A DNA stretch of 64,000 nt from a virus: IMG/VR virus record IMGVR_UViG_3300022602_002721, positions 1 to 64,000 of that record. One strand, 5' to 3'. Position 1 is the stretch's first letter. Every line of letters starts with the position of its first letter. Below are positions 2,613 through 52,788 of the stretch, piece by piece. Under the pieces are notes generated by a model that saw nothing but the letters and a program-made list of their open reading frames with translations, did not search any database and was not told the DNA's origin. Made by a program: the position numbers and the translations under genes.

Positions 2613-2642
2613 TTGACAACGCTTCAAGATTTGTGTTATACT
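2613..2642 (+). promoter_or_regulatory. sigma70-type promoter of the surface-sugar cluster
   Basis: TTGACA, 18-nt spacer, TATACT. The predicted 5' leader holds an inverted repeat GCGTA...TACGC (2653-2672) before the SD and ATG at 2693. A divergent TTGACA at 2591-2596 serves the minus strand, followed by 8-nt direct repeats (ACAAATAG). Confidence 0.75.
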
Positions 2643-2692
2643 TTTCTGTAATGCGTAAATATTTATCTACGCATATAATTATAAGGTCATTA

Positions 2693-3490: not shown

Positions 3491-4209
3491 TGTACGCACT
3501 CATAACACATCATGACATTGGCTATAAGCCATTGGCAGACTTAACTTGGGATGGCAACAAGTTATTATATGCACAGCAACACGGATATGCTACTCATGCT
3601 AGAACAGGCGATTGGGTTACAATGCAACCAAATGGTCTAATGACTGGCTTTGAAAAGATATATTTGGCAAAACAAACACTAGAAGAACATCCAGAGTACG
3701 AATGGATTTGGTGGACAGGTACTGATACCATGATTACTAATTTTTCTACAAGAATAGAAGATCGAGTAAACAATGCTTATCACTTTATAGTATGTGTTGA
3801 CATCAATGGTATAAATGCAGATAGCTTCTTAGTACGCAACACACTAGAAGGTCGTGGATTCCTAGACGAGATAATTGCTTGTGAAAAAGAATACATGAAG
3901 TTTTGGGATACAGAACAGCGAGCAATCGCAAACTTATTAGGATTGCCAGGCACAGGAGATCCGGGTTGGCCTATGCCAGGACATGTTAAGGTAAATGAAC
4001 GTTACCGTGATATCGTTAAAGTAATGCCACAGCGATACATGAATTCGTTTAACTATCAGATATATGGTAATACCTATAGTCACAGCAGAGATAAACTAGG
4101 CTATGACGGTAATTGGCAGTTCGGTGATTGGCTAATTCATTGGCCAGGAACACAGTTACCTCTCAGAAAAGACTTGGCAAACGCTTATAAACAATATATA
4201 ATACTATAA
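3490..4209 (+). CDS. glycosyltransferase, GT34/MNN10-like
   Basis: 239 residues. WIWWTGTDTMITN resembles the acidic nucleotide-sugar metal-binding motif of the galactosyl/mannosyltransferase GMA12/MNN10 family, and VCVDINGINADSFLVRNT the acceptor-side segment of that family. The start overlaps the stop of the upstream gene and the stop overlaps the next start, so translation is coupled. No membrane segment or signal peptide is visible, so it is probably cytosolic. Linkage unknown. Confidence 0.6.
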   Translation: MYALITHHDIGYKPLADLTWDGNKLLYAQQHGYATHARTGDWVTMQPNGLMTGFEKIYLAKQTLEEHPEYEWIWWTGTDTMITNFSTRIEDRVNNAYHFIVCVDINGINADSFLVRNTLEGRGFLDEIIACEKEYMKFWDTEQRAIANLLGLPGTGDPGWPMPGHVKVNERYRDIVKVMPQRYMNSFNYQIYGNTYSHSRDKLGYDGNWQFGDWLIHWPGTQLPLRKDLANAYKQYIIL

Positions 4210-5528: not shown

Positions 5529-5543
5529 AATAAAGGAGAAATT

Positions 5544-6347
5544 ATGAACCTAAAAGAAAGACAGATGCTTGACATCCTAAAAAGGGGCAAGCAAGAATTC
5601 GGATACACTGCGGTTAAGGCAGAGTTCGAAGCAGAAGGTACTCGTGTAGACGAGCTACTACGCCTTATTGAGATCGCTCGTAAGGCAGACTTAGGCATTG
5701 GCCTTAAGATTGGTGGTTGCGAAGCCATGCGTGATTTGATGGAAGTTAAACAATTTGGTGTTGACTATATCATTGCTCCTATGGTAGAAACAGGATACGC
5801 CTTGTCTAAATTCATCGACAGCAAAAACAAGATTTACGATGCAGACGAACAAGAATCAATCAAGTTCTTGACAAACCTAGAAACTATTACTGGCTATGAA
5901 AATCGTCATGACATGGTTCAAAAGGCTACAGTTGAAAACGGCTTAGACGGTATCGTTTTTGGTCGTGTTGACTTTGTTATGAGCCGTGGTGGCAATGGTC
6001 GCTTAGACATCAACAATGATGATGTTACAGAAATGGTTTGTGACGTTGCTCAATTAACTAAGGACGCAGGTCTTGAGTTAGTTATGGGTGGTGGTATTAG
6101 CCGCGATGCTATTCCAGCGATACGTGAAGTTCAAGCGATCCACTTGAGCCGTTATGAAACACGTAAGATTATTTTCAGCGGTGATGCGATTACATTGCCA
6201 ACAGCAGACAAAGCACTTGTTGCCGCTGTTGAGTTTGAATTGCTATGGTTGAAGAACAAGCGTGACTACTATGGTAGCATCTTTACAGAAGATGACAAGC
6301 GTATTGATATGCTTGAATCACGCTGGAAGGCTATGATCGGGTCTTAA
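5544..6347 (+). CDS. HpcH/HpaI-type aldolase
   Basis: 267 residues with SD AAAGGAG before ATG 5544. Segments LGIGLKIGGCEAMRDL, YIIAPMVETGYAL and GIVFGRVDFVMS match the TIM-barrel HpcH/HpaI aldolase-citrate lyase family (metal-dependent class II pyruvate aldolases). Members of this family occur in surface-polysaccharide loci. It converges on the minus-strand DHQ-synthase-like gene, with the 3' ends overlapping by 17 nt. Confidence 0.75.
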   Translation: MNLKERQMLDILKRGKQEFGYTAVKAEFEAEGTRVDELLRLIEIARKADLGIGLKIGGCEAMRDLMEVKQFGVDYIIAPMVETGYALSKFIDSKNKIYDADEQESIKFLTNLETITGYENRHDMVQKATVENGLDGIVFGRVDFVMSRGGNGRLDINNDDVTEMVCDVAQLTKDAGLELVMGGGISRDAIPAIREVQAIHLSRYETRKIIFSGDAITLPTADKALVAAVEFELLWLKNKRDYYGSIFTEDDKRIDMLESRWKAMIGS

Positions 6348-7359
6348 TTGGTGTTTGAGCAAGTGCTGAATGCACTTGCAACCAAAAGGCATTAGTTGGT
6401 TCAAAGCCTCGTTTAACAATAGAACCATTTACAGGTAGCACAAAGTTAATTTTGCTACCTGTATTCTTTTTGTCTTTAGTTAGTGCATCAGATACTTTAT
6501 CAACATCGATGTACTCGCCGCTAAAGTCTTTGTAATTTTCAAATAGAACTTTGTGTACATTTTCGTACCATTCCAAATCAACGAGTCCTTCTAAGTACGC
6601 AAAACGATTAACAACATCCATACCCATAGTAATCGCGATTCCATGAGGAATGGCAAAGTTAGTAGCTGATTCAATACCATGTCCAATACAGTGACCATAG
6701 TTAAGTATCTGTCTAATGTCTTGATCAAACTCGTCTGCTTCAATAAAGCGTTTCTTAATAATCAAAGCTCTACGGATATACTCTTTAACATTAGCTCTAG
6801 TAATTTCTTTTGGTTGTATTGGTGTGCTTGCTACTAAAAACAATTTAATTATTTCTCCAATACCACTCTTAAAGTCTTTATCTTCTAGTGTGTCTAAGAA
6901 TTGTGTAGAAATATAAACTTCATTAGGCGGAGTAAACGACCCTAGAAGGTTTTTATAGTTGTTAAAGTTAATACTACTTTTGCTACCAATACAGCTATCA
7001 GCTTGAGCTAACAATGTAGTAGGAACAAAAGACCATTTGATTCCTCGCATAAAGGTTGTAGCGATAAAGCAAGCGATGTCTTGTGTGATGCCGCCGCCAA
7101 TAGCAATCAAAACGCTATCACGTTTTAATTTCATTCCTAGTAGTTCAGTAATAAACGGTTCGATACCTTTGTAACTCTTAGTTTCTTCAGTAGCATCAAC
7201 TAGCACAACATTAGGTAATGTTACTCCTAACAGCGGATATACGTTCCGATCAATTAGATAATGCGTACCTAGTTTAGGAATGATATCGCTATTAAGAATA
7301 TTGTCTACGAAAGTTACGTAGTATGGTCCTGAGTGAGACCGAATTTTAAAATCATGCAC
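6331..7359 (-). CDS. 3-dehydroquinate synthase-like sugar cyclase
   Basis: AroB/sugar-phosphate cyclase fold: NAD-binding region VLIAIGGGITQDIACFIATTFMRG, PTTLLAQADSCIGSKSSINF, and metal histidines in ILNYGHCIGHGIE and IPHGIAI. I favour the GTG at 7359, 7 nt after GGAGG, giving about 342 residues; ATG at 7374 is the alternative. It overlaps the SDR gene end by 8 nt. In a sugar cluster it is more likely a cyclitol/keto-sugar enzyme than a shikimate enzyme. Ends in TAG. Confidence 0.75.
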   Translation of the reverse strand: MHDFKIRSHSGPYYVTFVDNILNSDIIPKLGTHYLIDRNVYPLLGVTLPNVVLVDATEETKSYKGIEPFITELLGMKLKRDSVLIAIGGGITQDIACFIATTFMRGIKWSFVPTTLLAQADSCIGSKSSINFNNYKNLLGSFTPPNEVYISTQFLDTLEDKDFKSGIGEIIKLFLVASTPIQPKEITRANVKEYIRRALIIKKRFIEADEFDQDIRQILNYGHCIGHGIESATNFAIPHGIAITMGMDVVNRFAYLEGLVDLEWYENVHKVLFENYKDFSGEYIDVDKVSDALTKDKKNTGSKINFVLPVNGSIVKRGFEPTNAFWLQVHSALAQTPIKTRS

Positions 7360-8056
7360 GGGTAAATCCTCCATCAATGGCAATATTTTGCCCTGAGATA
7401 TATGTGTTCTCATCGCTACCTAGTGTATATATTAGTTTAGCGACTTCATCAACATTTGCCAAACGCTTAATAGGTACATTTTCTAGTATCTTATTAACGC
7501 CAGCTTCGCCTAAGTTCTTCCAAGTCATTTCAGTATCAATGAATCCCGGAGCGACTGAATTACAAAGTATACCCATGCTAGCAAATTCGTTCGCTAGGGC
7601 TACAGTCATTCCATCAATACCAAACTTGCTAGCAGAGTAACTGGCACGACCTTGTTTACTAATCTTACCCCAAACTGAACTTACATTAACAATTCGTCCC
7701 CATTTGCGTTTAATCATGCTAGGTAGTGCGGCCTGACTAAGTCTAAACGGAGCATATAGGTTCACTTGCTGTACTTTGATAAAGTCTAATGGATCAACTT
7801 CACAAAAATTATCAATGATATTAATGCCAGCGTTGTTAACTAGTACAGTAAGCCTGCGATTCATAATATCTTCGCAGAGCATATCAATGCTTTCAAGATT
7901 GGTAAAATCACAACTGATGTATTCGTCTAGGTAATCAGGACAGTCTTTTTCATTAGTGCCTGTGCCTATTACATAATAGCCTTCTGCTTTATATTTCCTT
8001 GCTACTGATTCGCCAATGCCTCTAGTGGCACCAGTTACTAAAACTCTGTTATCCAT
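7352..8056 (-). CDS. short-chain dehydrogenase/reductase
   Basis: About 234 residues from ATG 8056 (SD AAGAGGA). Motifs: TGATRGIG (Rossmann TGxxxGIG), NNAG, catalytic Ser with YSASK (YxxxK), and C-terminal GGF. FabG-like classical SDR, presumably reducing a keto sugar made by the neighbouring enzymes. It forms a two-gene minus-strand unit with the DHQ-synthase-like gene, divergent from the TPP enzyme. Confidence 0.8.
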   Translation of the reverse strand: MDNRVLVTGATRGIGESVARKYKAEGYYVIGTGTNEKDCPDYLDEYISCDFTNLESIDMLCEDIMNRRLTVLVNNAGINIIDNFCEVDPLDFIKVQQVNLYAPFRLSQAALPSMIKRKWGRIVNVSSVWGKISKQGRASYSASKFGIDGMTVALANEFASMGILCNSVAPGFIDTEMTWKNLGEAGVNKILENVPIKRLANVDEVAKLIYTLGSDENTYISGQNIAIDGGFTRA

Positions 8057-8105
8057 TATTAGTCCTCTTGGATTATTTACACTCATTATATTAGCACATA
8101 AATAT

Positions 8106-8134
8106 TTGCAAATCAAGTGATTAGAGTGTATAAT
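8106..8134 (+). promoter_or_regulatory. promoter of the TPP-enzyme operon
   Basis: TTGCAA, 17-nt spacer, TATAAT, then AGAGG before a TTG start at 8161. A TATAAT on the opposite strand (about 8089-8094) could serve the SDR gene; both share the palindrome ATTTGCAAAT. Confidence 0.7.
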
Positions 8135-8160
8135 CATACTATAACTATAAGAGGTCATTC

Positions 8161-9939
8161 TTGAAAGTAAACGATTACATAGCCAAGCGATTAAACGAAG
8201 TTGGCATTACCAAAGTATACGGGCTAGTAGGCGGAAGCACAGCAGGATTAAATGATGGTTTTATCAATAATCCAAACATTGAATTTATTGCATTCCATCA
8301 CGAACAAGGCGCAGGACATGCGGCCGTTGGTTCAGCAAGAACAAATAACAAACTAAGTGTATGCAACGTCACAGCAGGTTGTGGGGTTACAAATGCTACT
8401 ACTAGTTTGCTCAACGCTTACGAAGAAAGTGCTCCTGTATTATTCCTTAGTGGTAATACAGCAATGGCCAATCAAGCCAAGTACATTAATCGTAATAAAA
8501 ATATCCATATTAGAAAATATGGCATCCAAGACCTTGATGCTATTCGCACAGTTGAACACATTAGTAAGTATGCTGTTGCTATTGAACGTGCAGAAGATGT
8601 ACCTTACGAATTAGACAAGGCTATTGATATTGCCTTATCTGGTCGCCCGGGCCCTGTATGGATTGACGTTCCAGGTAATTTACAATCCGCAGAAATTCCA
8701 GAAGGATATAAGCAATACGTCCCAGAAGATCTTAATCGTAGTTTTGCTTATCAACCATACCTTGATGCACTAGAAGTAATTTATAAATCAAAGCGTCCTT
8801 TGATCGTTGCAGGTAACGGTATTAATTTAGGTAATGCTAGAAGCCAACTTAGAGAATTTGTTGACTTACATCAAATTCCTTTTATTACTACATTCCTATC
8901 ACGTGACCTAATTGAATATGAGCATCCTCAGAACCTAGGTATGATGGGTATTAAAGGTGCCCGTGCCGCAAACTTTGCTATGCAGAACGCAGACTGTTTG
9001 ATCATTTTAGGCTGTTCAATGAACGTAACACATATTGGTTACGATTCAAAATCATTTAGTCCTGCAAGTACAAAAATTATGATTGACATTGATGTCAATG
9101 AACTTGGTAAGGACATATTCAAAGTTGATATGCCAATCAACGGTGATGTTAAAGACTTCTTCCATACAGCAAAGTCATATCCTAATGACTATGTTGCTAC
9201 AGACTGGGCAGAAAAATGTCAATACTGGAAAGCTAAATGGCCTATCTATAATCCAGAAGTACATCGTCCAGACACAGGCGGAGTGAACTTGTACGAAATC
9301 GTAGAAAGCATTAATCGCAATATGCAACCAAATGATTGTTTTATTGTTGATGCTGGTCAACCTTGTTACATTCTAAGCACTAACGGCAAGTACAAAGAAA
9401 ACTGTCGCTATATGGCACAGGCCGCACAAGGTGATATGGGCTATGCTATTCCTGCATCAGTAGGTGCGTACTTCGCTGATCCAACAATGAATATTACTAT
9501 TGTTATCGGTGAAGGTAGCTTCTATACTAATATGCAAGAGTTGGCGGTGATCCGTCAGCATCGTATTCCTGTAAAAATATTTGTTATCAACAATGACGGT
9601 TACATGAGTATTAAACAAACACAAGACAAGTTCTTTGGTGGACGCCAATGGGGTGTAAGTAGCTCTACTGGAGTATTCTTTGCTGATATAGCCAAGGTAG
9701 CAGATTCATTTGAAATACCTTACATGAAGATTACTAATAATGAAGACCTTGATAGATATATGGCACCACTAATGTCATATAAAGATGGTCCTCAGATCGT
9801 AGAATTCGTAAGCCAGAATACACTTGATGTATTACCAGCACAGGCAATCAAACCAGACGGTACCCAAGGAGGCTTGCACGATATGGCTCCGTTCCTTCCT
9901 GCTGAAGAACTTGCTAGCGAGATGATAGTTAAGATATGA
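8161..9939 (+). CDS. thiamine-diphosphate-dependent acetolactate-synthase-like enzyme
   Basis: 592 residues starting at TTG 8161 (SD AGAGG). It has the three-domain ThDP architecture: N-terminal Pyr domain with catalytic glutamate in FHHEQGAGHAA, central domain, and C-terminal PP domain with GEGSFYTNMQELAVIRQH and metal-binding NNDGYMSI (about residues 475-500). With an RfbH-like dehydrase in the cluster it could attach a two-carbon branch to a keto sugar, as YerE does in yersiniose synthesis; that role is inference. Its stop overlaps the next start (ATGA). Confidence 0.8.
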   Translation: MKVNDYIAKRLNEVGITKVYGLVGGSTAGLNDGFINNPNIEFIAFHHEQGAGHAAVGSARTNNKLSVCNVTAGCGVTNATTSLLNAYEESAPVLFLSGNTAMANQAKYINRNKNIHIRKYGIQDLDAIRTVEHISKYAVAIERAEDVPYELDKAIDIALSGRPGPVWIDVPGNLQSAEIPEGYKQYVPEDLNRSFAYQPYLDALEVIYKSKRPLIVAGNGINLGNARSQLREFVDLHQIPFITTFLSRDLIEYEHPQNLGMMGIKGARAANFAMQNADCLIILGCSMNVTHIGYDSKSFSPASTKIMIDIDVNELGKDIFKVDMPINGDVKDFFHTAKSYPNDYVATDWAEKCQYWKAKWPIYNPEVHRPDTGGVNLYEIVESINRNMQPNDCFIVDAGQPCYILSTNGKYKENCRYMAQAAQGDMGYAIPASVGAYFADPTMNITIVIGEGSFYTNMQELAVIRQHRIPVKIFVINNDGYMSIKQTQDKFFGGRQWGVSSSTGVFFADIAKVADSFEIPYMKITNNEDLDRYMAPLMSYKDGPQIVEFVSQNTLDVLPAQAIKPDGTQGGLHDMAPFLPAEELASEMIVKI

Positions 9940-10739
9940 AGATAGCTGTTATAGGTGCTAATGGATTTGTTGGACGTAATCTAGTTACGTTCTTAGGAAA
10001 ACAACACACAGTTGTTCCTGTAACTAGGTCTACACTAGACCTTTTAGATCCTATTGCTGTAACAGAGTATCTAAAAGAACAGCGATTTGATATCGTTATA
10101 AATGCCGCGGCATCAATGACGGATAATCAAGCACTAGCAGATGCTAGAAATAATCTCGGACTGTTCATGAACTTTTATGAAAACTCAGACTTATTCTTAA
10201 AGTTCATTAACCTAGCATCTGGTGCAGAATATGATCGCGAACTTGATATCGATCAAGCGCCAGAAGGATTGATATTCAGTCGTATGCCCAAAGACAGTTA
10301 TGGTTGGGGACAAAATATTAAGAGCCGCTTATGTCAAGATCGTCATAACTTTTATACCATACGCATCTTTAATTGTTTTGGTAAAGGTGAAGCTGCTACT
10401 CGCATATTCCCACGTTACTTAAATCGTGGAAATGATCGCTTTGAAATATCTAACGACAGATATTTTGATTACTTTACGATTGAAGACCTATGTACAGTTG
10501 TTGCCCATTGTATAGATAATAATTGGCTAGTTAGAGATGTTAATGCTGTATATCCAAACAAGTTTAAGATAAGTGAAGTGTTAGCTCAGTTCTGTGACCT
10601 AAATGACATTGAGCCTAATTTCACAGTTGTGTCTACTAGTAAGAATAATTATACTGGTAGCGGTGATAATTTACAGTCACTAGGAATCAAGTTAAGCGGA
10701 TTAGACGCTGGCCTAGTTAGATATTTAGATAAGGAATGA
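9936..10739 (+). CDS. NAD-dependent epimerase/reductase (SDR extended)
   Basis: 267 residues. IGANGFVGRNL is the extended-SDR nucleotide-binding motif, INAAASM follows, and DSYGWGQNIKSRL carries the Tyr-x3-Lys region in a weakened form (YGWGQNIK). Short for the family. Probably the reductase or epimerase following the TPP enzyme; the ATGA overlap shows coupling. Confidence 0.65.
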   Translation: MKIAVIGANGFVGRNLVTFLGKQHTVVPVTRSTLDLLDPIAVTEYLKEQRFDIVINAAASMTDNQALADARNNLGLFMNFYENSDLFLKFINLASGAEYDRELDIDQAPEGLIFSRMPKDSYGWGQNIKSRLCQDRHNFYTIRIFNCFGKGEAATRIFPRYLNRGNDRFEISNDRYFDYFTIEDLCTVVAHCIDNNWLVRDVNAVYPNKFKISEVLAQFCDLNDIEPNFTVVSTSKNNYTGSGDNLQSLGIKLSGLDAGLVRYLDKE

Positions 10740-10740
10740 A

Positions 10741-11616
10741 ATGACAGTTTTTGATTGTTGTATGTTTTTCAACGAAAACGATCTTTATGAGATTCGTTTA
10801 AAAACACATTGGGACTTTGTAGATAAGTTTATTGTTGTTGAAGCTGGACAAACACATACAGGTGATGATAAGCCTTTTAATTTTGATCAAGAACGGTTTA
10901 AACCATACGCTGAAAAATTAGTGTATGTTAAGTTCGATGATTTCCAAGAAGAAATTAATAAGTTTCCAGAGTTACTAGATGACGACTGTGTTCGTGATCG
11001 CGGAGTTGGCATGGAAACAGATGATTGGATACGTGATCACTTCCAAGCAAACTATCTTTATAAAGTAATGACAGACTTAGGTGCTCAAGATAACGACCTG
11101 GTGTATATTAGTTGCTTAGACGAAATTATCAAACCAGAAGCGTTTGAAGAAGCAAAGACAAGATTTCAAGGTACAGAACTATATCAAGACCTACGTCCAA
11201 TCTTTGGATTCCATTACAATCTATTTGTTTACAAATTCAATCTATTACACAAACGCTGGCAGGATCATGTTGCTGGTATGATTACAGAATTTGGAAACTT
11301 TAAGAAGATATTACCTACTACTATCCGCGATCGTGGCATGTCAACACATCCACATATACAGAATGGCGGATATCATTTTACTTTCTTAGATGACACAGAA
11401 GGTGAAAAAGTTCTAGCCAAACAAAAAGCATGGGCGCACAGCCGTGATAGATACCCTGGCCAAAAAGTCAAATACGATAATATAACCATTGAAGAAGCTC
11501 TTGAGCGTATGTTCAATGATTATCCGCATACTATTGTTCCTATCACAGCAGAAACACATCCTAAGTGCGTAGTAGAAAATTTAGATCAATATCAGAAATT
11601 TATATATAAGAGTTAA
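10741..11616 (+). CDS. glycosyltransferase, GT17-like
   Basis: 291 residues. MTVFDCCMFFNENDLYEIRL and FIVVEAGQTHTG match the family named after beta-1,4-mannosyl-glycoprotein N-acetylglucosaminyltransferase (GT17), common in phage and polysaccharide loci. LVYISCLDEIIKPEA holds the acidic motif. Followed after 1 nt by the dehydratase gene. Confidence 0.65.
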   Translation: MTVFDCCMFFNENDLYEIRLKTHWDFVDKFIVVEAGQTHTGDDKPFNFDQERFKPYAEKLVYVKFDDFQEEINKFPELLDDDCVRDRGVGMETDDWIRDHFQANYLYKVMTDLGAQDNDLVYISCLDEIIKPEAFEEAKTRFQGTELYQDLRPIFGFHYNLFVYKFNLLHKRWQDHVAGMITEFGNFKKILPTTIRDRGMSTHPHIQNGGYHFTFLDDTEGEKVLAKQKAWAHSRDRYPGQKVKYDNITIEEALERMFNDYPHTIVPITAETHPKCVVENLDQYQKFIYKS

Positions 11617-11617
11617 T

Positions 11618-12559
11618 ATGAAAAAGATAGTATATGTTACAGGTTGTTTAGGGTTTATTGGAAGTCACGTTACTCGTCAGTGCCTTGACTTAGGATGGTA
11701 TGTTATTGGTGTAGACAAATGTACCTATGCTAGCAACCAACAGTTCTTACCAGAGTTTGAAGCATATCCAAACTTTAAATTCATCAACAAAGACATTAAC
11801 GACTTAGACAAGTTATACGATTGCGACTATGTTATTAACACAGCCGCAGAAACTCACGTAGATAATTCAATCGCATCAAGCGATGTATTCCTAAAATCAA
11901 ATGTAAACGGCGTCCATCACTTGTTGAAACTGATGCGTGAAAAGTCAAATTTCAATATGCCTGTTCTATTACACTTCTCAACAGATGAAGTTTATGGCGA
12001 TATTGAAGAAGGCGCACATACAGAAGAAGATTTACTAAAGCCAAGTAACCCATACTCAGCAACTAAAGCGGCTGCAGATATGTTAGTATTAGCTTGGGCA
12101 CGTACTTACAAAGTGCCATACATCATGATCCGTCCAACTAACAACTACGGTATTGGTCAGTATGTAGAGAAACTAGTACCAAAGACTGTTAAGTATCTAA
12201 GCATTGGACGTAAGATTGATCTGCATGATAAGGGTCGTCCCCGCCGTACTTGGTTACATGCTAGCGATACAGCAAATGCTGTGATTACTATTATTAATGC
12301 AGGAGTAGTAAATGAGATTTACAATATCTCTGGCAACTATGAAACTGATAACTTAACAGTGGTAACCAAAATCCTCAACCTAATGGGCCTAACAGAGCCA
12401 GTTGAAAACTATACAATAGACCTAGTACGTCCTGGACAGGATGTCCGCTATGCTATTGATGACAGCAAACTTAAAGCACTTGGATGGTCATGCCGAGCTG
12501 ACTTCGACACAGAACTTGCAAAAATTGTAGACTACTATAAAACCAACTTTGTTTGGTAA
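11618..12559 (+). CDS. dTDP-glucose 4,6-dehydratase-like protein
   Basis: 313 residues. GCLGFIGSHV (GxxGxxG), AAETHVDNSIASSDVF, LLHFSTDEVYGD and PSNPYSATKAAADML (YxxxK) are hallmark RmlB segments. It would generate a 4-keto-6-deoxy sugar nucleotide, the substrate type used by RfbH-like dehydrases, so it logically feeds the cluster although encoded last. Confidence 0.85.
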   Translation: MKKIVYVTGCLGFIGSHVTRQCLDLGWYVIGVDKCTYASNQQFLPEFEAYPNFKFINKDINDLDKLYDCDYVINTAAETHVDNSIASSDVFLKSNVNGVHHLLKLMREKSNFNMPVLLHFSTDEVYGDIEEGAHTEEDLLKPSNPYSATKAAADMLVLAWARTYKVPYIMIRPTNNYGIGQYVEKLVPKTVKYLSIGRKIDLHDKGRPRRTWLHASDTANAVITIINAGVVNEIYNISGNYETDNLTVVTKILNLMGLTEPVENYTIDLVRPGQDVRYAIDDSKLKALGWSCRADFDTELAKIVDYYKTNFVW

Positions 12560-15199: not shown

Positions 15200-17242
15200 T
15201 TACTTTTCATGAGCTATGAATTCTCCCTGCCAGTTATCTGGTAGGTCTTGTTGTTTCATAAAGTCGCAACGTTCAATCCATATCTTGTAGTACTTGTCCA
15301 TCTGTCCGCCAAAGTTACCAATTAGCTTTTTACACATAGCGGCCGCTTCGTCAAACTTTTTCTGTTTGTACAAGGCATGCATCAATTCGTGTTGTACTTT
15401 ATCTTTGGTATAATCAGCACCTTTAGTACGTAGTGCTGTGTAAATTAAATCTGCTACAGTTTTACCTTTTGGTTGTAAGTTATCTAATAGCAAGTAAAAG
15501 AAGTTATCTTTGGTACGGTTGTAAGTTTCAGCACCAATGATACATAGCACACCATAAGCCTTACAACGAGCTTCTAAACGAGCAGCGGTTGAAACCATAT
15601 CACCTAAGATGTCATAGCTGTGTCGTTCTGTTGAACCCATCTCACCGATAAATCCAATACCTGAATTACAGCCCCAGCCCATAGCGGCAGGAGGTAATCC
15701 TTGTGCTTCCATTATCTTAGTATACTCGTCTACCTTGTCTAGCATCTCTAAACCTACTTTAACGATAGTGTGAGCGTGGTTAGGATCTTCAATAGGAGCA
15801 CCGTGTATGTGCATTGACGCATCGCCTACGTACTTGATAATCATACCCTTGTTATCTAGCATTGGCTGACTGATAGCATCCATATAACCGTTCATGTACT
15901 TGCCTAGGCCAGCGACGTCATCGCCATAGTGTTCGCCAATAGGTGTAAAGCCACGCAGGTCACTGAACATAACTGATACGTCTTTACGTACACCACGCTT
16001 GATTAGGTCTGGATCTTTTTGTAATAGCTCTACAACTTCTTTACTACAGTAACCTGCAAACTGTTTCTTAATTGCTTGTTTCTGTAAGAACTCGCTTATA
16101 AACTTAACACCATAAGCGTGAAGCATGACCAAAACAAGACCGCCGACCGGAAGAGTCGCATCCACGAGTTGGAGGCCACTGCTATATGCGTATCCACATA
16201 AAGGAATAATAGAGCCAATGATAACAACACCCGATACAATACCAACATAAGTCCACCTTGTTAAAAATAATAATACGAGACCTGCTACCAATAGTCCCAA
16301 TATCTCTGCACCATCTGCCCAGTCAGGACGTTGTATAACCACACCGTTCATCATAGTTCCCACAGTTGCGGCAACTACATCCTGTGGCCATACTGCACCC
16401 TTGCTAGTTGGAATAGGATTACCTATACCTGCGGCAGTTGTTCCTAGGATAACAACAGCACCCTCTAGATCTTTAGGCAAATCGATTAGGCTAACTTGTT
16501 TGTTTTGTTGACTCCAGTCAATCCATATCCTACCCAAGCTGTCCGTGCTTATAGCTCCAAACTTGGGGATACGCATTTTCTCAACACCATTTTCGTTGAG
16601 CTTGACTTGAAAAGTTGAATCGCCGGCCGCAACTCTGAGTGTCTCTAGAGCTATGCTCGGATATAATTTTCCATCGATAGTGGCTATTAATGGTAGACGG
16701 CGATTCACCCCGTCAATCTCTGGCAGTGTGTTAGTTGTTCCAATACCCGCAGCTGGATTTTCTAACGCAGGTATGTTAGCGATCAATCCGGGATATTGAA
16801 GTATAGTATCTAAATAGTTTGCCCCTATTACAGCAGATCCTGGCTGTCTAGGTGTATTCTTTGTTTTCTGCGAAGGAGTATTTGCTAGGACTACAGGGTA
16901 CTTACTTAGAGCTTGACCCAGCGTAGTATCTCCACCAGAGCGATCTTGTTCGGGCATGAGTATATCAAATACAACAAGTCCCGCTCCCCTCTTATATAGA
17001 TCTCGTATAATTTTGGCATATTCAGCTCTCGGTAAAGGCCATTGACCGTATTTGTCTAGTGTTGCTTCATCAATATTTACAGTTACGATATTATTGAATG
17101 TAGGTGCCTTGGATGTAATAAGTGTGTCAAAATAACGTAGTCTTACGCTTTCAACAAATGAGGGATCTGCGATTCGTATGCCCACTACCAACGCTAGAGT
17201 TAATAGAGCAGTCCATGGGCTCAAAAGGATTTTTTTCAGCAT
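15200..17242 (-). CDS. CHASE2 sensor-adenylate/guanylate cyclase, membrane-bound
   Basis: 680 residues. N-terminal helix, periplasmic CHASE2 sensor (VTVNIDEATLDKYGQWPLPR ... GLVVFDILMPEQDR), three transmembrane helices near residues 310-390, then a class III cyclase domain (DVSVMFSDLRGFTPIGE; GMIIKYVGDASMHIHGAP with a metal aspartate; YDILGDMVSTAARLE). It should make cAMP or cGMP in the cytosol in response to a periplasmic signal. TATAAATA lies 4 nt before the ATG. It follows a FecR protein and a curlin gene, so the signal may concern the envelope or amyloid. Confidence 0.85.
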   Translation of the reverse strand: MLKKILLSPWTALLTLALVVGIRIADPSFVESVRLRYFDTLITSKAPTFNNIVTVNIDEATLDKYGQWPLPRAEYAKIIRDLYKRGAGLVVFDILMPEQDRSGGDTTLGQALSKYPVVLANTPSQKTKNTPRQPGSAVIGANYLDTILQYPGLIANIPALENPAAGIGTTNTLPEIDGVNRRLPLIATIDGKLYPSIALETLRVAAGDSTFQVKLNENGVEKMRIPKFGAISTDSLGRIWIDWSQQNKQVSLIDLPKDLEGAVVILGTTAAGIGNPIPTSKGAVWPQDVVAATVGTMMNGVVIQRPDWADGAEILGLLVAGLVLLFLTRWTYVGIVSGVVIIGSIIPLCGYAYSSGLQLVDATLPVGGLVLVMLHAYGVKFISEFLQKQAIKKQFAGYCSKEVVELLQKDPDLIKRGVRKDVSVMFSDLRGFTPIGEHYGDDVAGLGKYMNGYMDAISQPMLDNKGMIIKYVGDASMHIHGAPIEDPNHAHTIVKVGLEMLDKVDEYTKIMEAQGLPPAAMGWGCNSGIGFIGEMGSTERHSYDILGDMVSTAARLEARCKAYGVLCIIGAETYNRTKDNFFYLLLDNLQPKGKTVADLIYTALRTKGADYTKDKVQHELMHALYKQKKFDEAAAMCKKLIGNFGGQMDKYYKIWIERCDFMKQQDLPDNWQGEFIAHEK

Positions 17243-20300: not shown

Positions 20301-21464
20301 TTATTTTTTATTATTTCCTTGTGATACTTCCGTTAAATCGCTCTCTCGGACATACCCTCCATGCCCGTACTCATCTTTCGCAAACCACCATCCATTTTCT
20401 TTTTTCTTAACTGCTAGTTTAGTACCTTGTGTTAGTTGCCAACGTTTTGTTGAACCCTCGTCAGCGTGTGCATATAAAAATGCTAAATTTTTAAGATACT
20501 TGACTTCTTCTTGAGGTAGTGGATCATTCTTAGCTTCTGTCTTAATTTCTTCTTTTTTAACTTCTGCTGTAATTTCTTCTTTTTTAACTTCTACTTCTTT
20601 TATTTCAGCCTTCGGTGTTACTGTGACTGGTTGAGGTAGAGTCGGAGTCATTACCACAGGTGGAGCTTTTCTAAATTCCCATACTCCTTTACTTTCACCT
20701 TCCTTAATTAATTCAACTACCGCTGCTTCAATAGTTGTTTTAACCGCCAGTGTCCCTGGCTCATTTATAGTCAATCCAGTTTCAGCTTCAAACGCCTGTG
20801 TACCATCACTAAAGAATTTCAACATGGCAAAACTATCTGCTGTTGAGTAAACCGTTTTAGTAACATGAACTGCCGCCACCACCTTGCCTGTGTTAACACT
20901 AATCGCTCTCAAGCTAACTGTTACGATATCTTTAGAGTATTGTGTTTGTGGACCGATACCTAACCAACGGTATGCTGCGCCTCCGCTTTCACTTGAACTG
21001 TCATAACCAATAATACCCCCTTCCATAATGATCCCTGCAAATTGCAAAGGCATTAACGGAGTTGAGTCCTTTCCTTCATAGGCGTCACGCATCTGTTTAA
21101 TGATGGTGCGCTCTTTAACCAAATTATCAATACCCACACGTTCAACAACGTCAAACCATTGCCCGTGTCCTACATCCTGAAGTGCCTTGATAAGAAACAC
21201 TTCTGCACCCTGTGTAACAGCCATACTAAAACTTGCTACACCTGTTTGAGTTTTACGCTGTCCAGTTTTATCAGCGAACCCGTATACCGCAACAGATACT
21301 CGTCTTGCATTAGCAGGAGCGGGAATAGTATCAAATTCTTTCTGCATTTTGTTTATAGCTAGTTCTGGAGTATGCTCAATGCCAGCAAGCTGTCCACCTT
21401 TCTGCATTATGGCGCAGCCAGGCAACAATAGAGTCAGCAATAATAAACATATTATTCTTTTCAT
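20301..21464 (-). CDS. csgG: CsgG-like curli secretion lipoprotein with SH3-like tail
   Basis: 387 residues. Lipobox LLLPGC directs lipidation. The core (VSVAVYGFADKTGQRK, SMAVTQGAEVFLIKAL, FDVVERVGIDNLVKER, RAISVNTGKVV) matches CsgG, which forms a nonameric outer-membrane pore exporting curlin. A Lys/Glu-rich linker and an extra C-terminal SH3-like domain (FLYAHADEGSTKRWQLTQGT) go beyond the usual length of about 280 residues. Follows csgF by 1 nt. Confidence 0.85.
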   Translation of the reverse strand: MKRIICLLLLTLLLPGCAIMQKGGQLAGIEHTPELAINKMQKEFDTIPAPANARRVSVAVYGFADKTGQRKTQTGVASFSMAVTQGAEVFLIKALQDVGHGQWFDVVERVGIDNLVKERTIIKQMRDAYEGKDSTPLMPLQFAGIIMEGGIIGYDSSSESGGAAYRWLGIGPQTQYSKDIVTVSLRAISVNTGKVVAAVHVTKTVYSTADSFAMLKFFSDGTQAFEAETGLTINEPGTLAVKTTIEAAVVELIKEGESKGVWEFRKAPPVVMTPTLPQPVTVTPKAEIKEVEVKKEEITAEVKKEEIKTEAKNDPLPQEEVKYLKNLAFLYAHADEGSTKRWQLTQGTKLAVKKKENGWWFAKDEYGHGGYVRESDLTEVSQGNNKK

Positions 21465-24011: not shown

Positions 24012-24522
24012 AGGTGTGCATAATTTTAATGGCCCAGTCAAAGGCTTTATTTGCTTCGTCACCTAAGTCATCACTTAGTTTACTACGAATTGCTACTTTT
24101 AATCCATCCACATCTTTAAACTCTAGATTGCGGTGTGGAACATAATCTAGGATCTTTTTAATCATCTGCCCGCCAAACAGGTCACCCATGTGCCATACGT
24201 ACAAGTGAGCGGCAACTAGCCCTTCTGGCAAGTCTAGGATATAGCGATGATAGTCAATCGTTTCTTGACGGAACTTTGGAAAGTTTCCATCCAACATTTC
24301 TTTAGCATCTAGATATAGAGCATGAGCACGGTCAATGCCTGGAAGATCATCTAGTAAGCCTTCTGCACGAGCTTTAGTTTCAATAGCACCATACCATAGC
24401 ATTTTGTTGTATGAGTAGTCTGCCCAAATTTCTTTAGGAATCTTGCCGCGGATAGTTGCGGCCATAAACGGTGTATGTTCCGCTTCTGTGTGTTTGTCTT
24501 TGGTAATTTCTTTTAGGCTCAT
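23992..24522 (-). CDS. hemO: heme oxygenase
   Basis: 176 residues, smaller than cyanobacterial HO1. The proximal-histidine region is DKHTEAEHTPFM and the distal helix GDLFGGQMIKKIL carries the glycine-rich heme-contact motif. It opens heme to biliverdin, iron and CO in the cytosol; the next gene encodes the bilin reductase that would use the biliverdin. ATGA overlap with clpS. Confidence 0.87.
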   Translation of the reverse strand: MSLKEITKDKHTEAEHTPFMAATIRGKIPKEIWADYSYNKMLWYGAIETKARAEGLLDDLPGIDRAHALYLDAKEMLDGNFPKFRQETIDYHRYILDLPEGLVAAHLYVWHMGDLFGGQMIKKILDYVPHRNLEFKDVDGLKVAIRSKLSDDLGDEANKAFDWAIKIMHTYDAELI

Positions 24523-24821
24523 TCTGCCTCCACTTTAATAACTAATGGGAAACCTTCTTTACGTGCCATGTCAGTTGCTTCTAGGCACTTTTGTTCTGCG
24601 ATTTCATAACTGTAGATACCTGCGATAGCAGATCCTTCTTCGTGGACCTTTAACATAACGGTAGCAGAATCCATTTCGTTAAAACGGAACACCTTCATCA
24701 GCATGGCAATAACAAACTCCATGGGTGTTACGTTGTCGTTATAAATTACAACTTTATATCTGGTAGGTTCAGCAATTTCTGTATTAGTCTTTTGTCTGAC
24801 CTTAGTTAATGTTTCCGCCAT
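24519..24821 (-). CDS. clpS: ClpS adaptor
   Basis: 100 residues. YKVVIYNDNVTPMEFVIAML contains the N-end-recognition Asn-Asp; HEEG includes the conserved histidine. ClpS delivers N-degron substrates to ClpA/ClpP. A phage copy could redirect host proteolysis. Its own stop overlaps heme oxygenase, so the proteolysis and bilin genes share a transcript. Confidence 0.87.
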   Translation of the reverse strand: MAETLTKVRQKTNTEIAEPTRYKVVIYNDNVTPMEFVIAMLMKVFRFNEMDSATVMLKVHEEGSAIAGIYSYEIAEQKCLEATDMARKEGFPLVIKVEAE

Positions 24822-32462: not shown

Positions 32463-32708
32463 TTAATAGAGTTTTGGTGGAAGTTGTTGTGAACGTAGTT
32501 GCTTGCGCCAACGTGCTTTTGCGGCACCTTTTTTACGCTTGCGTTCTGTGGTTGGTTTTTCGTATTGCTGACGTTTAAGTACTTCCATAAGAAGTCCAGA
32601 ATCGTCCACTTTCTTTTTAAATTTACGAAGTGCAGAGTTGAAGTTGTCCCCAACTTCTACACGTAAACCAGTTAGATTTTTAGTTTGATTGTTGTAATTC
32701 TTTGCCAT
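32463..32708 (-). CDS. rpsU: ribosomal protein bS21
   Basis: About 81 residues from ATG 32708. VEVGDNFNSALRKFKKKVDD, GLLMEVLKRQQYEKPTTERK and the Arg/Lys-rich end (KKGAAKARWRKQL) match bS21, which sits near the 16S anti-SD at the 30S platform. Phage bS21 copies are known and are thought to bias translation toward phage mRNAs. It begins inside the 3' end of clpX in another frame (29-nt overlap). Confidence 0.88.
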   Translation of the reverse strand: MAKNYNNQTKNLTGLRVEVGDNFNSALRKFKKKVDDSGLLMEVLKRQQYEKPTTERKRKKGAAKARWRKQLRSQQLPPKLY

Positions 32709-33930
32709 TATCTTTATCAAAAATTAGTACCGCTTTGCCTCCTTCGGCTGTATCTTTACTTATCACTATTGTAGTCAAACCACGCTCCGCTAGGTCCACA
32801 CTTTCAAACTGATATTGCATTAACATCTTTTCAATAATCTGTTTTAGGCCACGAGCGTTAGTTTTTTGTTCTTTAGCACGTTCAGCAATAACACGTAATG
32901 CGTCATCTTCAAACTTTAGTTCAATACCATCTAGTTTAAAGATATATTGGTATTGTTTAACGATACTGTTTTTTGGTTCCTTAAGAATACTAACCAACTC
33001 ATCAACAGTAAGTTCGTTTACGTTAACGGTTAAACCAAAACGTCCAATAAACTCTGGTATAAGTCCATAGGTAATAAGATCCTTGGTACTAAAGTTTTCG
33101 TAGTGGTTTGTATCTTCTGATTTGCTAACAACTTTGCTGTTAAATCCAATTGAACTCTTTTCGGATCTAGCACTAATAACCTTGTCTATGCCCACAAACG
33201 CACCACCACAAATAAACAAGATATTTGAAGTATCGATTTCAATCATATCACCCTTAGGGTGTTTACGCTTACTACCTGAGGGTACACGTACTACAGAGCC
33301 TTCAATAATCTTTAATAGTGCTTGCTGTACACCTTCGCCGCTTACGTCACGGGTAATACTAACATTTTCACCTTTGCGGGCGATCTTGTCAATTTCATCA
33401 ATATAAACAATGCCGTGTTCTGCTTTTTTGATATCGTCATCTGCAACACTTAACAAACGAGTCAAGATGCTTTCTACGTCATCACCTACATAACCTGCTT
33501 CAGTAAGTCCTGTAGCATCACATACAGCGAATGGCAAATCCAAGAACTCTGCAATCTTTTTGGCCATCATAGTTTTACCACAGCCTGTAGGGCCTAGCAT
33601 AAGCACGTTAGTTTTTTCTAACTTGATATCTTTGCTTGGACTATTGATACGCTTGTAGTGTTGTGATACTCCAACTGATAAAGCGATTTTAGCCTGATCC
33701 TGTCCAATTACATATTGATCAAGATAGTCTTTAATCTTAGTTGGATTAAACTTTTGTTTTTCTTCTGCTTCAGGAAAGTCTTTTACTTTTTCTTCATGCA
33801 GGATATTAGAGCATAGATCGATACATTCATTACAAATGCCAATGTTATCGCCCCCTACAATTAACTTTTCAACATCCTCTTTGCTCTTACCGCAAAAACT
33901 ACAGGAATGTAAATCTTTATCACTTGACAT
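32680..33930 (-). CDS. clpX: ClpX unfoldase
   Basis: About 416 residues. N-terminal zinc domain [11 protein letters not shown]...CNECIDLC, Walker A GPTGCGKT, Walker [11 protein letters not shown], sensor and pore motifs (GYVGDD), and an IGF loop (SSIGFNSK) needed to dock ClpP. It should therefore work with host ClpP, possibly on phage-chosen substrates such as tmRNA-tagged or regulatory proteins. SD AAAGGG; start overlaps the upstream gene. Confidence 0.92.
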
Positions 33931-34312
33931 CAAATGCCCTTTCTAGAAATTGTTCAATACTTAAAACACGGTTATTATTAACGTGGCTTATAAGAGAAGC
34001 CAAACTTTCGTTCTTGGTCATATAGTATACGTTTGGGCGACTAGCAATATAGCTGGCCATAATATTAATTATAGCATGTTCGCAGTCAAGGTTCAAGAAT
34101 TTGGCATCCGCTCTGTTAGTCGCATACAATAACCAACTAGGATTATTCTCGCCTTGGTAGTAGTAAAAATTTACATCTGGATAGCTAGGTTGGCTAGCTA
34201 ACCAGTTGCTGGTTTTTTCTTGATCTTCAGTAGTCATGCCCAAGAACAAGACACTGAAGTTTGAGTTTTCGTATATGTCTGGTGGTGTTATTAAAGTTAT
34301 TTTACTTGACAT
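33920..34312 (-). CDS. conserved phage protein, unknown
   Basis: 130 residues. SVLFLGMTTEDQEKTSNWLA, then VYYMTKNESLASLISHVNN: alternating strands and helices of a response-regulator-like size, but without the acidic triad. It overlaps clpX and the membrane protein gene. Function unknown. Confidence 0.55.
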   Translation of the reverse strand: MSSKITLITPPDIYENSNFSVLFLGMTTEDQEKTSNWLASQPSYPDVNFYYYQGENNPSWLLYATNRADAKFLNLDCEHAIINIMASYIASRPNVYYMTKNESLASLISHVNNNRVLSIEQFLERAFDVK

Positions 34313-40547: not shown

Positions 40548-40624
40548 TGGTGCGTTGGATGGGAATCGAACCCACTACATGATGATTTAGAGTCACCTGC
40601 CCTTACCTTACGGGCTACCAACGC
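40548..40624 (-). tRNA. amber-reading tRNA (CUA anticodon)
   Basis: Complete cloverleaf: acceptor GCGUUGG/CCAACGC, discriminator A, encoded CCA; D-stem GCCC/GGGC; anticodon stem GGUGA/UCAUC around loop CUCUAAA, giving CUA; T-arm GUGGG-UUCGAUU-CCCAU. CUA pairs with UAG. It lies alone, 39 kb from the array. The charged amino acid cannot be told from sequence; the anticodon arm looks lysine-like. Confidence 0.88.
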
Positions 40625-47685: not shown

Positions 47686-47970
47686 CTAGCGTACAATGCC
47701 AAAAATTTCACTTTCAACTAGCATGAATAATTCTTCACCGTCAACTTTTACAGGAAGCCCTGCACCTTTGGTAAAGACGATTTCATCACCTGATTTAACT
47801 GTAGTTTCAACAAACTTGTTGCCAACTTGTTTACCAGGACCTACAGCAACTACTGTACCTTGGTTTGTCTTTTCTAATGCAGATGGTGCAAATACAATAC
47901 CGCTTTCTGTTTCTTTTGCAGCGGCTTCACGTCTTACTAGGACTCTGTCATGTAACGGTAAAAAACTCAT
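47686..47970 (-). CDS. groS: GroES co-chaperonin
   Basis: 94 residues, full GroES length. PLHDRVLVRREAAAKETESG, GTVVAVGPGK and the mobile-loop region (ETESGIVFAPSALEKTN) are present. Replaces or supplements host GroES for capsid-protein folding, as gp31 does in T4. Ends in TAG. Confidence 0.92.
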   Translation of the reverse strand: MSFLPLHDRVLVRREAAAKETESGIVFAPSALEKTNQGTVVAVGPGKQVGNKFVETTVKSGDEIVFTKGAGLPVKVDGEELFMLVESEIFGIVR

Positions 47971-50767: not shown

Positions 50768-51229
50768 TTAGAAACTATACTTAGCACCGACCAAAACTGT
50801 GTTGCCTTGGAATTTCTTCGCGGCGTCATCAGTAGCTTGGAAACGATAATCCACAGTTGCGGTTACTTTGGTTGTAACTGGAAGGCTTGCACCTAAACCA
50901 ACTACGCCTGCATAACGATCGCTTGAATTCAATGTGCCATTATCGATATATGCTACACCAGCTTTGGCTGTGAAAGTAGCTGTACCAAACTTAGCAAAGT
51001 CATAACCACCTAGTAGGTTGAACTTGTTGGTGTTGCCTTTGACTTCACGTAGTGCTTCTGCTGCTACACTCCATGGGCCAAAATGTTCGCCAACTGTAAG
51101 ACCGGCTGTACCATGGTTGGCTCCACCGTTCAAAAAGTCTGTACCACCTACTACACCAACTTCAACTGCTTGAGCTGTAGTTGCTACTGCGGCTAATGCC
51201 AATAATGTTGCTAATGCAATTTTCTTCAT
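50768..51229 (-). CDS. outer-membrane beta-barrel protein
   Basis: 153 residues with signal peptide (LATLLALAAVATTAQA). Alternating strands and a C-terminal aromatic (VGAKYSF) are typical of small outer-membrane barrels. Might alter the infected cell's surface. SD AAAGGAAG; promoter TTGACA-18-TATACT just upstream. Confidence 0.75.
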   Translation of the reverse strand: MKKIALATLLALAAVATTAQAVEVGVVGGTDFLNGGANHGTAGLTVGEHFGPWSVAAEALREVKGNTNKFNLLGGYDFAKFGTATFTAKAGVAYIDNGTLNSSDRYAGVVGLGASLPVTTKVTATVDYRFQATDDAAKKFQGNTVLVGAKYSF

Positions 51230-51314: not shown

Positions 51315-51625
51315 CAAAGAAAAAGCACCCGAAGGTGCTTTTTGGTATTTTCTGTTACGAGGTATTTCCTACCCTAGTCAGCTGTTAAGCTGCCAATGCG
51401 TAAACGTTGTCGTTTGCGTTTATAGGTTTTGCTTGATTTACAGTCATCGCCTACTGTGTTGCCGTCTTCACTATCTCACCATGTCGAAACCAGGTCATCC
51501 CCATCAAAAACACATTCTGTTACATGTCACCGTTTCGCGCCTACGGTCGAATATGTTTTTGGTGGAGATGGGCGGAATCGAACCGCCGTCCACAGCGCCT
51601 TTGATCCAAAGGAATTACAACAATT
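51315..51625 (-). ncRNA. ssrA: circularly permuted two-piece tmRNA
   Basis: On the minus strand the acceptor half comes first: T-arm GGCGG-UUCGAUU-CCGCC and CAUCUCC-ACCA ending at 51560. After a 57-nt spacer the coding half begins at 51502 with GGGGAUG, which pairs perfectly with CAUCUCC. The tag ORF (51417-51385) reads ANDNVYALAA then TAA. A terminator hairpin (AAAAAGCACC...GGUGCUUUUU) ends it near 51315. The promoter is a perfect consensus. tmRNA tags stalled proteins for proteolysis; permuted genes are known from alphaproteobacteria, some betaproteobacteria and cyanobacteria. Confidence 0.92.
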
Positions 51626-51631
51626 ACTGCT

Positions 51632-51660
51632 ATTATACATTTATTTTAATAGTCTGTCAA
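51632..51660 (-). promoter_or_regulatory. tmRNA promoter, perfect consensus
   Basis: TTGACA, 17-nt spacer, TATAAT; the predicted start is near 51625. Confidence 0.85.
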
Positions 51661-51759: not shown

Positions 51760-52788
51760 TTAATACAATTGGAGTCCGGGACCCTTCCACACATCGTTGT
51801 ATAAAGAGCCAACGTGATCCCCTGCACTAGCAGGACGATTGCCTGTAGGGCCACCAGTACCGCTTAGGCGATAAATGCCCTGACCTACAAAGCTGATATG
51901 TACCCAATTTTGGATATAGGGTTTGCCGTTAGCTACAGCATCACGGTATTCTATTAGTATTTGATCGTAAGGTAAATTATCACGCATCCATTGAGCACGT
52001 TGATAAGTTAATGGGCGGGCACGATCAGCAAATATAACATCTGCAGCCTGTCCATTACCGTGTTGTGCTTGTCCAGCCCCTTCACGGAATGTGTTTGTAA
52101 CTCTAAAGTCAGGATACTGATCGCGAAGTGGATCTAGTACGTTTTGGGCTAGCAAAGATAAGTTACAAACGATTTCATCTATCCTCCAACCTTTGTTTGC
52201 TGTTGGGCGATGTCCATTAAACTGTATCAGCTGTCCATCTGTCCATTTTCGTAACAAATTATCTAGAGTGAAATATTTGCTGACACGCAGATCCAAAGGA
52301 AACGTAGACATGCTGTGTATCTGGCCACAGTTTTGTATAGCACCTTGTAGTGTAGAACCGGGTTTATTATCAACTGCGGTTGACTGTGCTGATTCTGTTC
52401 TTTGTACGATACCAGGATCTAGATGTCCTTTGGCTACTTGTTGTTTTAAGAATGTTATCGCTGTGCCGTGTGTTTTTGGATCAGCACTTTCAAGTTCGTC
52501 ATTTTGAACGATAATCACATCAGCATGAACATCAGCATTGCCAACGAATACATCTTGGCTAGCATGGCCAACCGCTTGTCCTCTAGCTGTTCTTGCACCT
52601 TCCATGGCCATACGTTTATTGTTTACATATACGTTAGTTTGGCTTGAAGTAATAACATCACCGTTTTTAAGAGTGCTTCCTTCAGTAGCTGATGGAAAGT
52701 TATCTAGGTAAACGTTTGTAGAGCCTGCACTGATTAATGCACCTGCTTTGTCTTTGTTTACTCTCGCGGCTGAATAATCTGCGGCCAT
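51760..52788 (-). CDS. PAAR spike tip fused to M15-type peptidase
   Basis: 342 residues. The N-terminal PAAR-like domain (SAGSTNVYLDNFPSATEGST, SQTNVYVNNKRMAMEGARTA) would cap the tail spike; the C-terminal domain has HGNGQAADVIF and NWVHISF, the zinc-peptidase M15 (VanY-like) pattern that cuts D-Ala bonds. It plays the role of T4 gp5 lysozyme: piercing and digesting the wall at injection. Confidence 0.8.
   Translation of the reverse strand: MAADYSAARVNKDKAGALISAGSTNVYLDNFPSATEGSTLKNGDVITSSQTNVYVNNKRMAMEGARTARGQAVGHASQDVFVGNADVHADVIIVQNDELESADPKTHGTAITFLKQQVAKGHLDPGIVQRTESAQSTAVDNKPGSTLQGAIQNCGQIHSMSTFPLDLRVSKYFTLDNLLRKWTDGQLIQFNGHRPTANKGWRIDEIVCNLSLLAQNVLDPLRDQYPDFRVTNTFREGAGQAQHGNGQAADVIFADRARPLTYQRAQWMRDNLPYDQILIEYRDAVANGKPYIQNWVHISFVGQGIYRLSGTGGPTGNRPASAGDHVGSLYNDVWKGPGLQLY

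What the first reader, a model, noticed from the sequence alone, without database searches (positions are those of the whole stretch)
51315..51660. Circularly permuted tmRNA in a phage, tag ANDNVYALAA
The acceptor half (T-arm plus ACCA) precedes the coding half; the two pair perfectly over 7 bp (GGGGAUG/CAUCUCC). A perfect promoter and a terminator frame it. The permuted form is lineage-restricted, so it is a clue to the host or the gene's origin. With phage clpX and clpS it suggests viral control of trans-translation and proteolysis.
Basis: partly seen in the sequence, partly recalled or inferred. Interest (0 to 1): 0.8.

Follow-up and report, generated by a model that had tools for sequence, protein, structure and literature searches.

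The report
Phage-borne two-piece tmRNA gene
A large bacterial virus carries a complete, circularly permuted copy of the bacterial ribosome-rescue RNA (tmRNA); this kind of phage gene is already known, but here it sits upstream of a phage ClpX unfoldase gene in a conserved order seen in eight related viral contigs.

Summary
On the minus strand (about 51625 to 51318) lies a complete circularly permuted tmRNA. Rfam beta_tmRNA scores 176.8 bits (E 4e-55), tmRNA_permuted scores 156.8, and ARAGORN reads the tag ANDNVYALAA. The alanine G3:U70 wobble, a consensus promoter (51660-51632) and a terminator hairpin are present. The record is a 71.7-kb IMG/VR virus fragment. The phage ClpX and ClpS are real and look intact. 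There is no SmpB, ClpP or integrase, so the RNA would use host SmpB, AlaRS and ClpP. It is not new in kind: two-piece tmRNAs are described in phage Melnitz and others (PMC9004378).

First, in 8 related viral contigs the tmRNA lies 5-10 kb upstream of a homologous clpX on the same strand (17 kb here), a conserved arrangement; tmRNAs elsewhere mostly lack clpX, so the link belongs to one clade. Second, permutation is a poor clue to host: Pseudomonas phage SM1, isolated on P. aeruginosa (one-piece tmRNA, general knowledge), carries an unannotated permuted tmRNA, and the window's nearest relatives found are viral. The mechanism is inferred, not tested.

The parts
51632..51660 (-). sigma-70 consensus promoter TTGACA-17-TATAAT driving the tmRNA
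   Evidence: exact 12/12 match; 4 such sites in the window against 0.06 expected
51318..51625 (-). permuted tmRNA transcript, predicted from about +1 to the terminator
   Evidence: RF01850 176.8 bits, RF04321 156.8 bits; ARAGORN tmRNA*; ends predicted, not mapped
51560..51625 (-). acceptor piece: T-arm GGCGG-TTCGATT-CCGCC, acceptor 3' strand CATCTCC, encoded ACCA
   Evidence: sequence and CM alignment
51503..51559 (-). 57-nt intervening segment expected to be removed by tRNA-processing enzymes
   Evidence: position between ACCA and the acceptor 5' strand; removal inferred from known two-piece tmRNAs
51318..51502 (-). coding piece, beginning with acceptor 5' strand GGGGATG (RNase P site expected before it)
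   Evidence: CM alignment; predicted dimer -73.3 kcal/mol against -62.9 for the two pieces apart
51385..51417 (-). tag reading frame GCA AAC GAC AAC GTT TAC GCA TTG GCA GCT TAA = ANDNVYALAA, resume codon GCA
51344..51377 (-). 3' pseudoknot-region motif CTAGGGTAGGAAATACCTCGTAACAGAAAATACC, nearly identical in several other phage tmRNAs with different tags
   Evidence: BLAST of the motif over fetched loci
51320..51343 (-). intrinsic terminator hairpin (GCACC-TTCG-GGTGC, T-run)
   Evidence: sequence; scan
32680..33933 (-). phage ClpX, 417 aa, with zinc-binding domain, Walker A/B, GYVG and RKH pore loops, IGF ClpP-docking tripeptide
   Evidence: PF06689 and PF07724; translation
24519..24821 (-). 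phage ClpS, 100 aa
   Evidence: PF02617 E 9.6e-29; translation
47686..47970 (-). phage GroES-like co-chaperonin, part of the proteostasis gene set
   Evidence: PF00166 E 1.4e-25

Best explanation
This is a functional phage-encoded two-piece tmRNA of the beta/permuted type. Shown by sequence: one promoter-driven, terminator-ended transcript holds the T-arm/acceptor 3' half first and the tag-coding half second; the halves form the tRNA-Ala-like acceptor stem with G3:U70; the tag has a resume codon, a stop and a C-terminal LAA. Inferred: host tRNA-processing enzymes excise the intervening segment, host AlaRS charges the RNA, host SmpB takes it to ribosomes stalled on broken or non-stop mRNA during infection (phage nucleases and host mRNA decay would make many), and the tag ANDNVYALAA is added. 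Tagged products go to ClpXP, where the phage ClpX, with its ClpP-docking loop kept, could replace or supplement the host unfoldase on host ClpP. The likely benefit is keeping ribosomes free, and recycling peptides, during infection. In this phage clade tmRNA and clpX are kept in the same order and orientation.
For: CM and ARAGORN hits. Consensus promoter. Across the 66 of 111 permuted tmRNA sequences in which both acceptor strands were found, pair 3 is G:U in 66 of 66, and pairs 4, 5 and 6 show changes on both sides (GC/CG, AT/GC/CG, TA/AT). Of 44 distinct viral tags in that set, 41 end in AA and 31 in LAA (ARAGORN's tag scoring favours this). Fourteen other viral contig stretches share the tag; 13 match permuted tmRNA models and the fourteenth (L019) is cut at its end. 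ClpX relatives found by ClpX alone, without regard to tmRNA: 7 of 9 records (own sibling contig left out) also hold a permuted tmRNA over the cut-off, and G007 is an eighth. In all eight it lies 4.6-9.5 kb upstream of clpX on the same strand (17.4 kb in the window). ClpX motifs are intact. No SmpB in 45 viral records, so the phage would depend on host SmpB.
Against: No expression, processing or charging data exist. The conserved clpX arrangement comes from related phages, so shared descent explains it without functional coupling. Most phage records with a permuted tmRNA lack clpX. The acceptor-pair survey required at least 6 of 7 pairs, which favours pairing. The record is an incomplete 71.7-kb fragment.
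Confidence: 0.75

Rival explanations
1. Decoy: the phage RNA mainly titrates host SmpB or AlaRS and so inhibits host trans-translation, as proposed for the tRNA-like-domain-only RNA of mycobacteriophage DS6A.
For: An inhibitory phage tmRNA-like RNA has precedent (DS6A, PMC11915505 and PMC4131195). No phage SmpB is encoded.
Against: The mRNA-like part is complete: resume codon, open tag with an LAA end, stop, conserved 3' pseudoknot-region motif. A decoy would not need these; DS6A has lost them.
Confidence: 0.1
2. Passenger: a host ssrA gene picked up by imprecise excision of an element integrated at ssrA, kept without function.
For: tmRNA genes are common integration sites (PMC11915505), and the Melnitz authors discuss this route (PMC9004378).
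Against: No tyrosine integrase in this record or in 18 other viral records. The gene has its own consensus promoter and terminator, is flanked by phage genes, and its nearest relatives found are viral. Structure and tag end are conserved across diverse phages.
Confidence: 0.08
3. The tmRNA and the phage ClpX/ClpS act as one phage-controlled tagging-and-degradation module that selectively degrades host proteins.
For: Same-strand tmRNA-clpX order in 9 of 9 records that hold both close homologues, the window included; ClpX keeps the motifs needed for tag recognition and ClpP docking.
Against: Most tmRNA-bearing phage records lack clpX; clpS is absent from several clpX+tmRNA records (G007, G015). 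Trans-translation tags whatever is stalled and has no known target choice.
Confidence: 0.2

Closest known systems
Two-piece tmRNA (ssrA) of Methylophilales phage Melnitz and related pelagimyophages (PMC9004378)
   Same: Complete permuted tmRNA in a large phage; thyX, nrdA/B and a csgG-like gene also occur in both genomes; no integrase found in either
   Different: Melnitz's is alpha-type and reported as controlled by a glutamine riboswitch; this one scores as beta-type, has a sigma-70 consensus promoter, and no riboswitch was found at Rfam's gathering cut-offs
Betaproteobacterial two-piece tmRNA, Rfam RF01850
   Same: Full-length model match, same order of parts, similar tag
   Different: 176.8 bits against 248-336 for nine Burkholderiales genes (five others score 157-169); the window's closest sequences are other viral ones
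Permuted tmRNA of Pseudomonas phage SM1 (KU245542), unannotated in GenBank
   Same: Permuted, beta-type match 111 bits, cultured phage
   Different: Tag ANDTSFDVRLAA; the host's own tmRNA is one-piece (general knowledge)
Sinorhizobium jumbo phage AP-J-162 (PMC11242549)
   Same: A phage reported to carry both a tmRNA and clpX
   Different: Different phage group and host class; form of its tmRNA not checked here

Membership tests
Permuted (two-piece) tmRNA, RF04321 / RF01850 | Covariance-model score above the gathering cut-off | tested here: met
   156.8 against 47 bits; 176.8 against 84 bits
Permuted (two-piece) tmRNA, RF04321 / RF01850 | Acceptor/T-arm half encoded upstream of the tag half, with pairing between them | tested here: met
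   order in the CM alignment; acceptor stem GGGGATG/CATCTCC, predicted to form in the dimer
Permuted (two-piece) tmRNA, RF04321 / RF01850 | Alanine identity G3:U70 and encoded CCA | tested here: met
   G3:U70 and ACCA visible; G:U at pair 3 in 66 of 66 sequences scored
Permuted (two-piece) tmRNA, RF04321 / RF01850 | Tag frame with resume alanine codon, hydrophobic/AA end and stop | tested here: met
   GCA..TAA, ANDNVYALAA
Permuted (two-piece) tmRNA, RF04321 / RF01850 | Processing into two RNA molecules | not testable with these tools
   needs Northern or RACE
Phage trans-translation module with its own SmpB or protease | SmpB encoded by the phage | tested here: not met
   none in the record or in 44 others; records are fragments
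Phage trans-translation module with its own SmpB or protease | ClpP encoded by the phage | tested here: not met
   none in the record; the record is a fragment
ClpX | Zinc-binding domain, AAA+ motifs, GYVG and RKH pore loops, IGF docking loop | tested here: met
   PF06689, PF07724; motifs read in the translation

The most novel reading that the evidence does not exclude
A clade of large phages keeps a linked tmRNA-clpX arrangement, so that the phage supplies both the tagging RNA and the unfoldase that reads the tag and takes over the host's ribosome-rescue-to-proteolysis route; and permuted tmRNA genes move among phages regardless of the host's own tmRNA form, possibly seeding the scattered permuted genes of Burkholderiales (15 of 399 species sampled).
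Probability: 0.2. Interest if true: 0.6.

Novelty: new member of a known kind. Interest (0 to 1): 0.33.

Why it matters
Phage tmRNAs are catalogued but, apart from work on the DS6A RNA, I found no functional test of one. This case gives a complete gene, a conserved clpX partner in one clade, and a pointer to a cultured phage (Pseudomonas phage SM1) in which a permuted phage tmRNA can be tested in a host with a one-piece tmRNA. It also warns against inferring a phage's host from the permuted form of its tmRNA.

Tried and rejected
Decayed copy or second tmRNA in the record: RF00023 gave only fragments of the same gene and tRNAs. Integration-site relic: no integrase in 19 viral records. Bacterial contamination: flanked by an endolysin-like gene, thyX and nrdA/B, with a phage-type exonuclease and a virion-protein match farther out, and a second contig (L015/L144) holds the same tmRNA beside an identical copy of the upstream gene. 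Host from the tag: only two bacterial genomes in the GTDB collection share the tag and both use one-piece genes, so the tag does not name a host. Tree of permuted tmRNAs: the window groups with viral sequences (bootstrap 77), and Burkholderiales genes fall in three places, but deep support is low and no alpha or cyanobacterial genes were included, so no origin is claimed. Permuted genes in two Burkholderiales genomes that also hold a standard tmRNA (G211, G306) were checked for prophage; the neighbouring genes tested look chromosomal. A fuzzy motif scan timed out and was replaced by BLAST. A first tree run failed on thread count.

Full report
What is there. On the minus strand of the window, a promoter with exact consensus hexamers (TTGACA-17-TATAAT, 51660-51632) is followed by a T-arm/acceptor half ending in ACCA (51625-51560), a 57-nt intervening segment (51559-51503), and a coding half starting GGGGATG (51502) that holds the tag frame GCA AAC GAC AAC GTT TAC GCA TTG GCA GCT TAA (51417-51385) and ends at a hairpin with a T-run (51343-51320). 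Rfam gives beta_tmRNA 176.8 bits (E 4e-55) and tmRNA_permuted 156.8 bits; ARAGORN calls tmRNA* with ANDNVYALAA. The two halves pair over seven positions with a G:U at position 3, the alanine identity element. The pairing is not 'perfect' Watson-Crick, and that is what a tmRNA should show.

Where it is. The window belongs to a 71,687-base IMG/VR virus record. Around the gene are an endolysin-like protein (51760-52788), thyX, nrdA/nrdB, a phage-type exonuclease, NAMPT-type and NUDIX genes and eleven tRNAs. No other tmRNA is in the record. The record is a fragment, so absence of other genes is weak evidence.

Conservation. A scan of viral contigs for the tag found 14 stretches. ARAGORN calls the permuted form in 12, the permuted covariance models match a thirteenth (L011), and L019 starts inside the gene, 11 bases before the tag. 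Over all loci held at that point, ARAGORN called 96 permuted and 16 standard genes; the motif I chose resembles the beta type, and the 96 include three loci of the window itself, the window, and at least one doubtful call, so the ratio is not a survey. Where both acceptor strands could be found (66 of 111 sequences), pair 3 is G:U in all 66, pairs 4 and 6 occur in two orientations, and pair 5 as A-U, G-C and C-G. That is covariation across the break between the two pieces; the search required at least 6 of 7 pairs, which biases it. Of 44 distinct viral tags in this set, 41 end in AA and 31 in LAA, although the middle of the tag varies widely (ARAGORN favours such ends). A 33-34 nt stretch of the 3' pseudoknot region is nearly identical in phage tmRNAs with different tags.

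ClpX and ClpS. ClpX (32680-33933) has the zinc-binding and AAA_2 domains, and the translation shows [15 protein letters not shown] and the IGF tripeptide used to dock ClpP (motif roles from general knowledge). ClpS (24519-24821) matches PF02617 at E 9.6e-29. A GroES-like gene is also present. SmpB and ClpP are not in the record, and SmpB is in none of 44 other viral records. Viral records found by ClpX alone were then searched for permuted tmRNA: leaving out the window's own sibling contig, 7 of 9 have one over the cut-off, and G007, found through the tag, is an eighth with ClpX 68% identical. Comparing coordinates, the tmRNA is upstream of clpX on the same strand in all eight, at 4.6-9.5 kb, and at 17.4 kb in the window. 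This is a conserved gene order in a clade, not proof of joint function: among 18 records picked by ThyX, 9 have a permuted tmRNA but only one has a clear clpX, and ClpS is missing from several clpX+tmRNA records.

Origin and host. A sample of 399 Burkholderiales species has 15 beta-type matches over the cut-off; 13 of these 15 genomes have no standard tmRNA over its cut-off. The window's sequence is closer to many viral permuted tmRNAs than to any of the 14 well-formed Burkholderiales genes compared, and a tree places it with viral sequences (support 77; deep branches poorly supported). Pseudomonas phage SM1, isolated on P. aeruginosa, has an unannotated permuted tmRNA with beta-type score 111 and tag ANDTSFDVRLAA. 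P. aeruginosa itself uses a one-piece tmRNA (general knowledge). The permuted form therefore does not reveal the host.

What is known. Phage Melnitz has a two-piece tmRNA, and the same paper counted 133 distinct phage tmRNA structures in 18,146 genomes, 53 of them two-piece (PMC9004378). The 2025 tmRNA database lists 79 bacteriophage sequences (PMC11915505). A Sinorhizobium jumbo phage is reported with both a tmRNA and clpX (PMC11242549). The finding is a new member of a known kind; the conserved tmRNA-clpX order in this clade I did not find described, within the papers I could search.

Most likely function. Processing, charging, SmpB binding and tagging are inferred from the family. The best-supported reading is a working tmRNA that relieves ribosome stalling during infection using host SmpB, with tagged products read by host or phage ClpX on host ClpP. 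A pure decoy or a passenger gene fits less well because the tag frame, its end and the 3' motif are kept and no integrase is present in 19 viral records.

Noticed in passing
40548-40624: ARAGORN calls a tRNA with anticodon CTA (amber suppressor type, labelled tRNA-Pyl). TAG ends only 3 of 52 main ORFs I counted, so amber read-through is possible but not shown.
   Followed up: partly
L314 3004-3303 (Pseudomonas phage SM1, KU245542): Permuted tmRNA in a stretch without annotated genes of a cultured P. aeruginosa phage; related phages UF_RH6 and vB_PaeS_FBPa45 match too.
   Followed up: partly
20301-21464: CsgG-like curli pore protein in a phage (PF03783, E 5.6e-42), as reported for Melnitz and pelagimyophages.
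   Followed up: no
15200-17242: CHASE2 plus adenylate/guanylate cyclase catalytic domain protein encoded in a viral record.
   Followed up: no
50768-51229: Small protein with a signal-peptide-like start and a weak YfaZ match directly downstream of the tmRNA, with its own near-consensus promoter at 51302-51273.
   Followed up: no
2633-12559: Cluster of sugar-metabolism genes (DegT aminotransferase, dehydroquinate-synthase-like, TPP enzyme, glycosyltransferase), perhaps for surface glycan or DNA modification.
   Followed up: no
G211 and G306 (loci L294, L296, L312, L313): Two Burkholderiales genomes hold both a standard tmRNA and a permuted-type match; neighbouring genes tested look chromosomal, and mixed assemblies cannot be excluded.
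   Followed up: partly
L023: A Rhodanobacteraceae assembly has a one-piece tmRNA with the tag ANDNVYALAA, one of only two bacterial matches to this tag.
   Followed up: no
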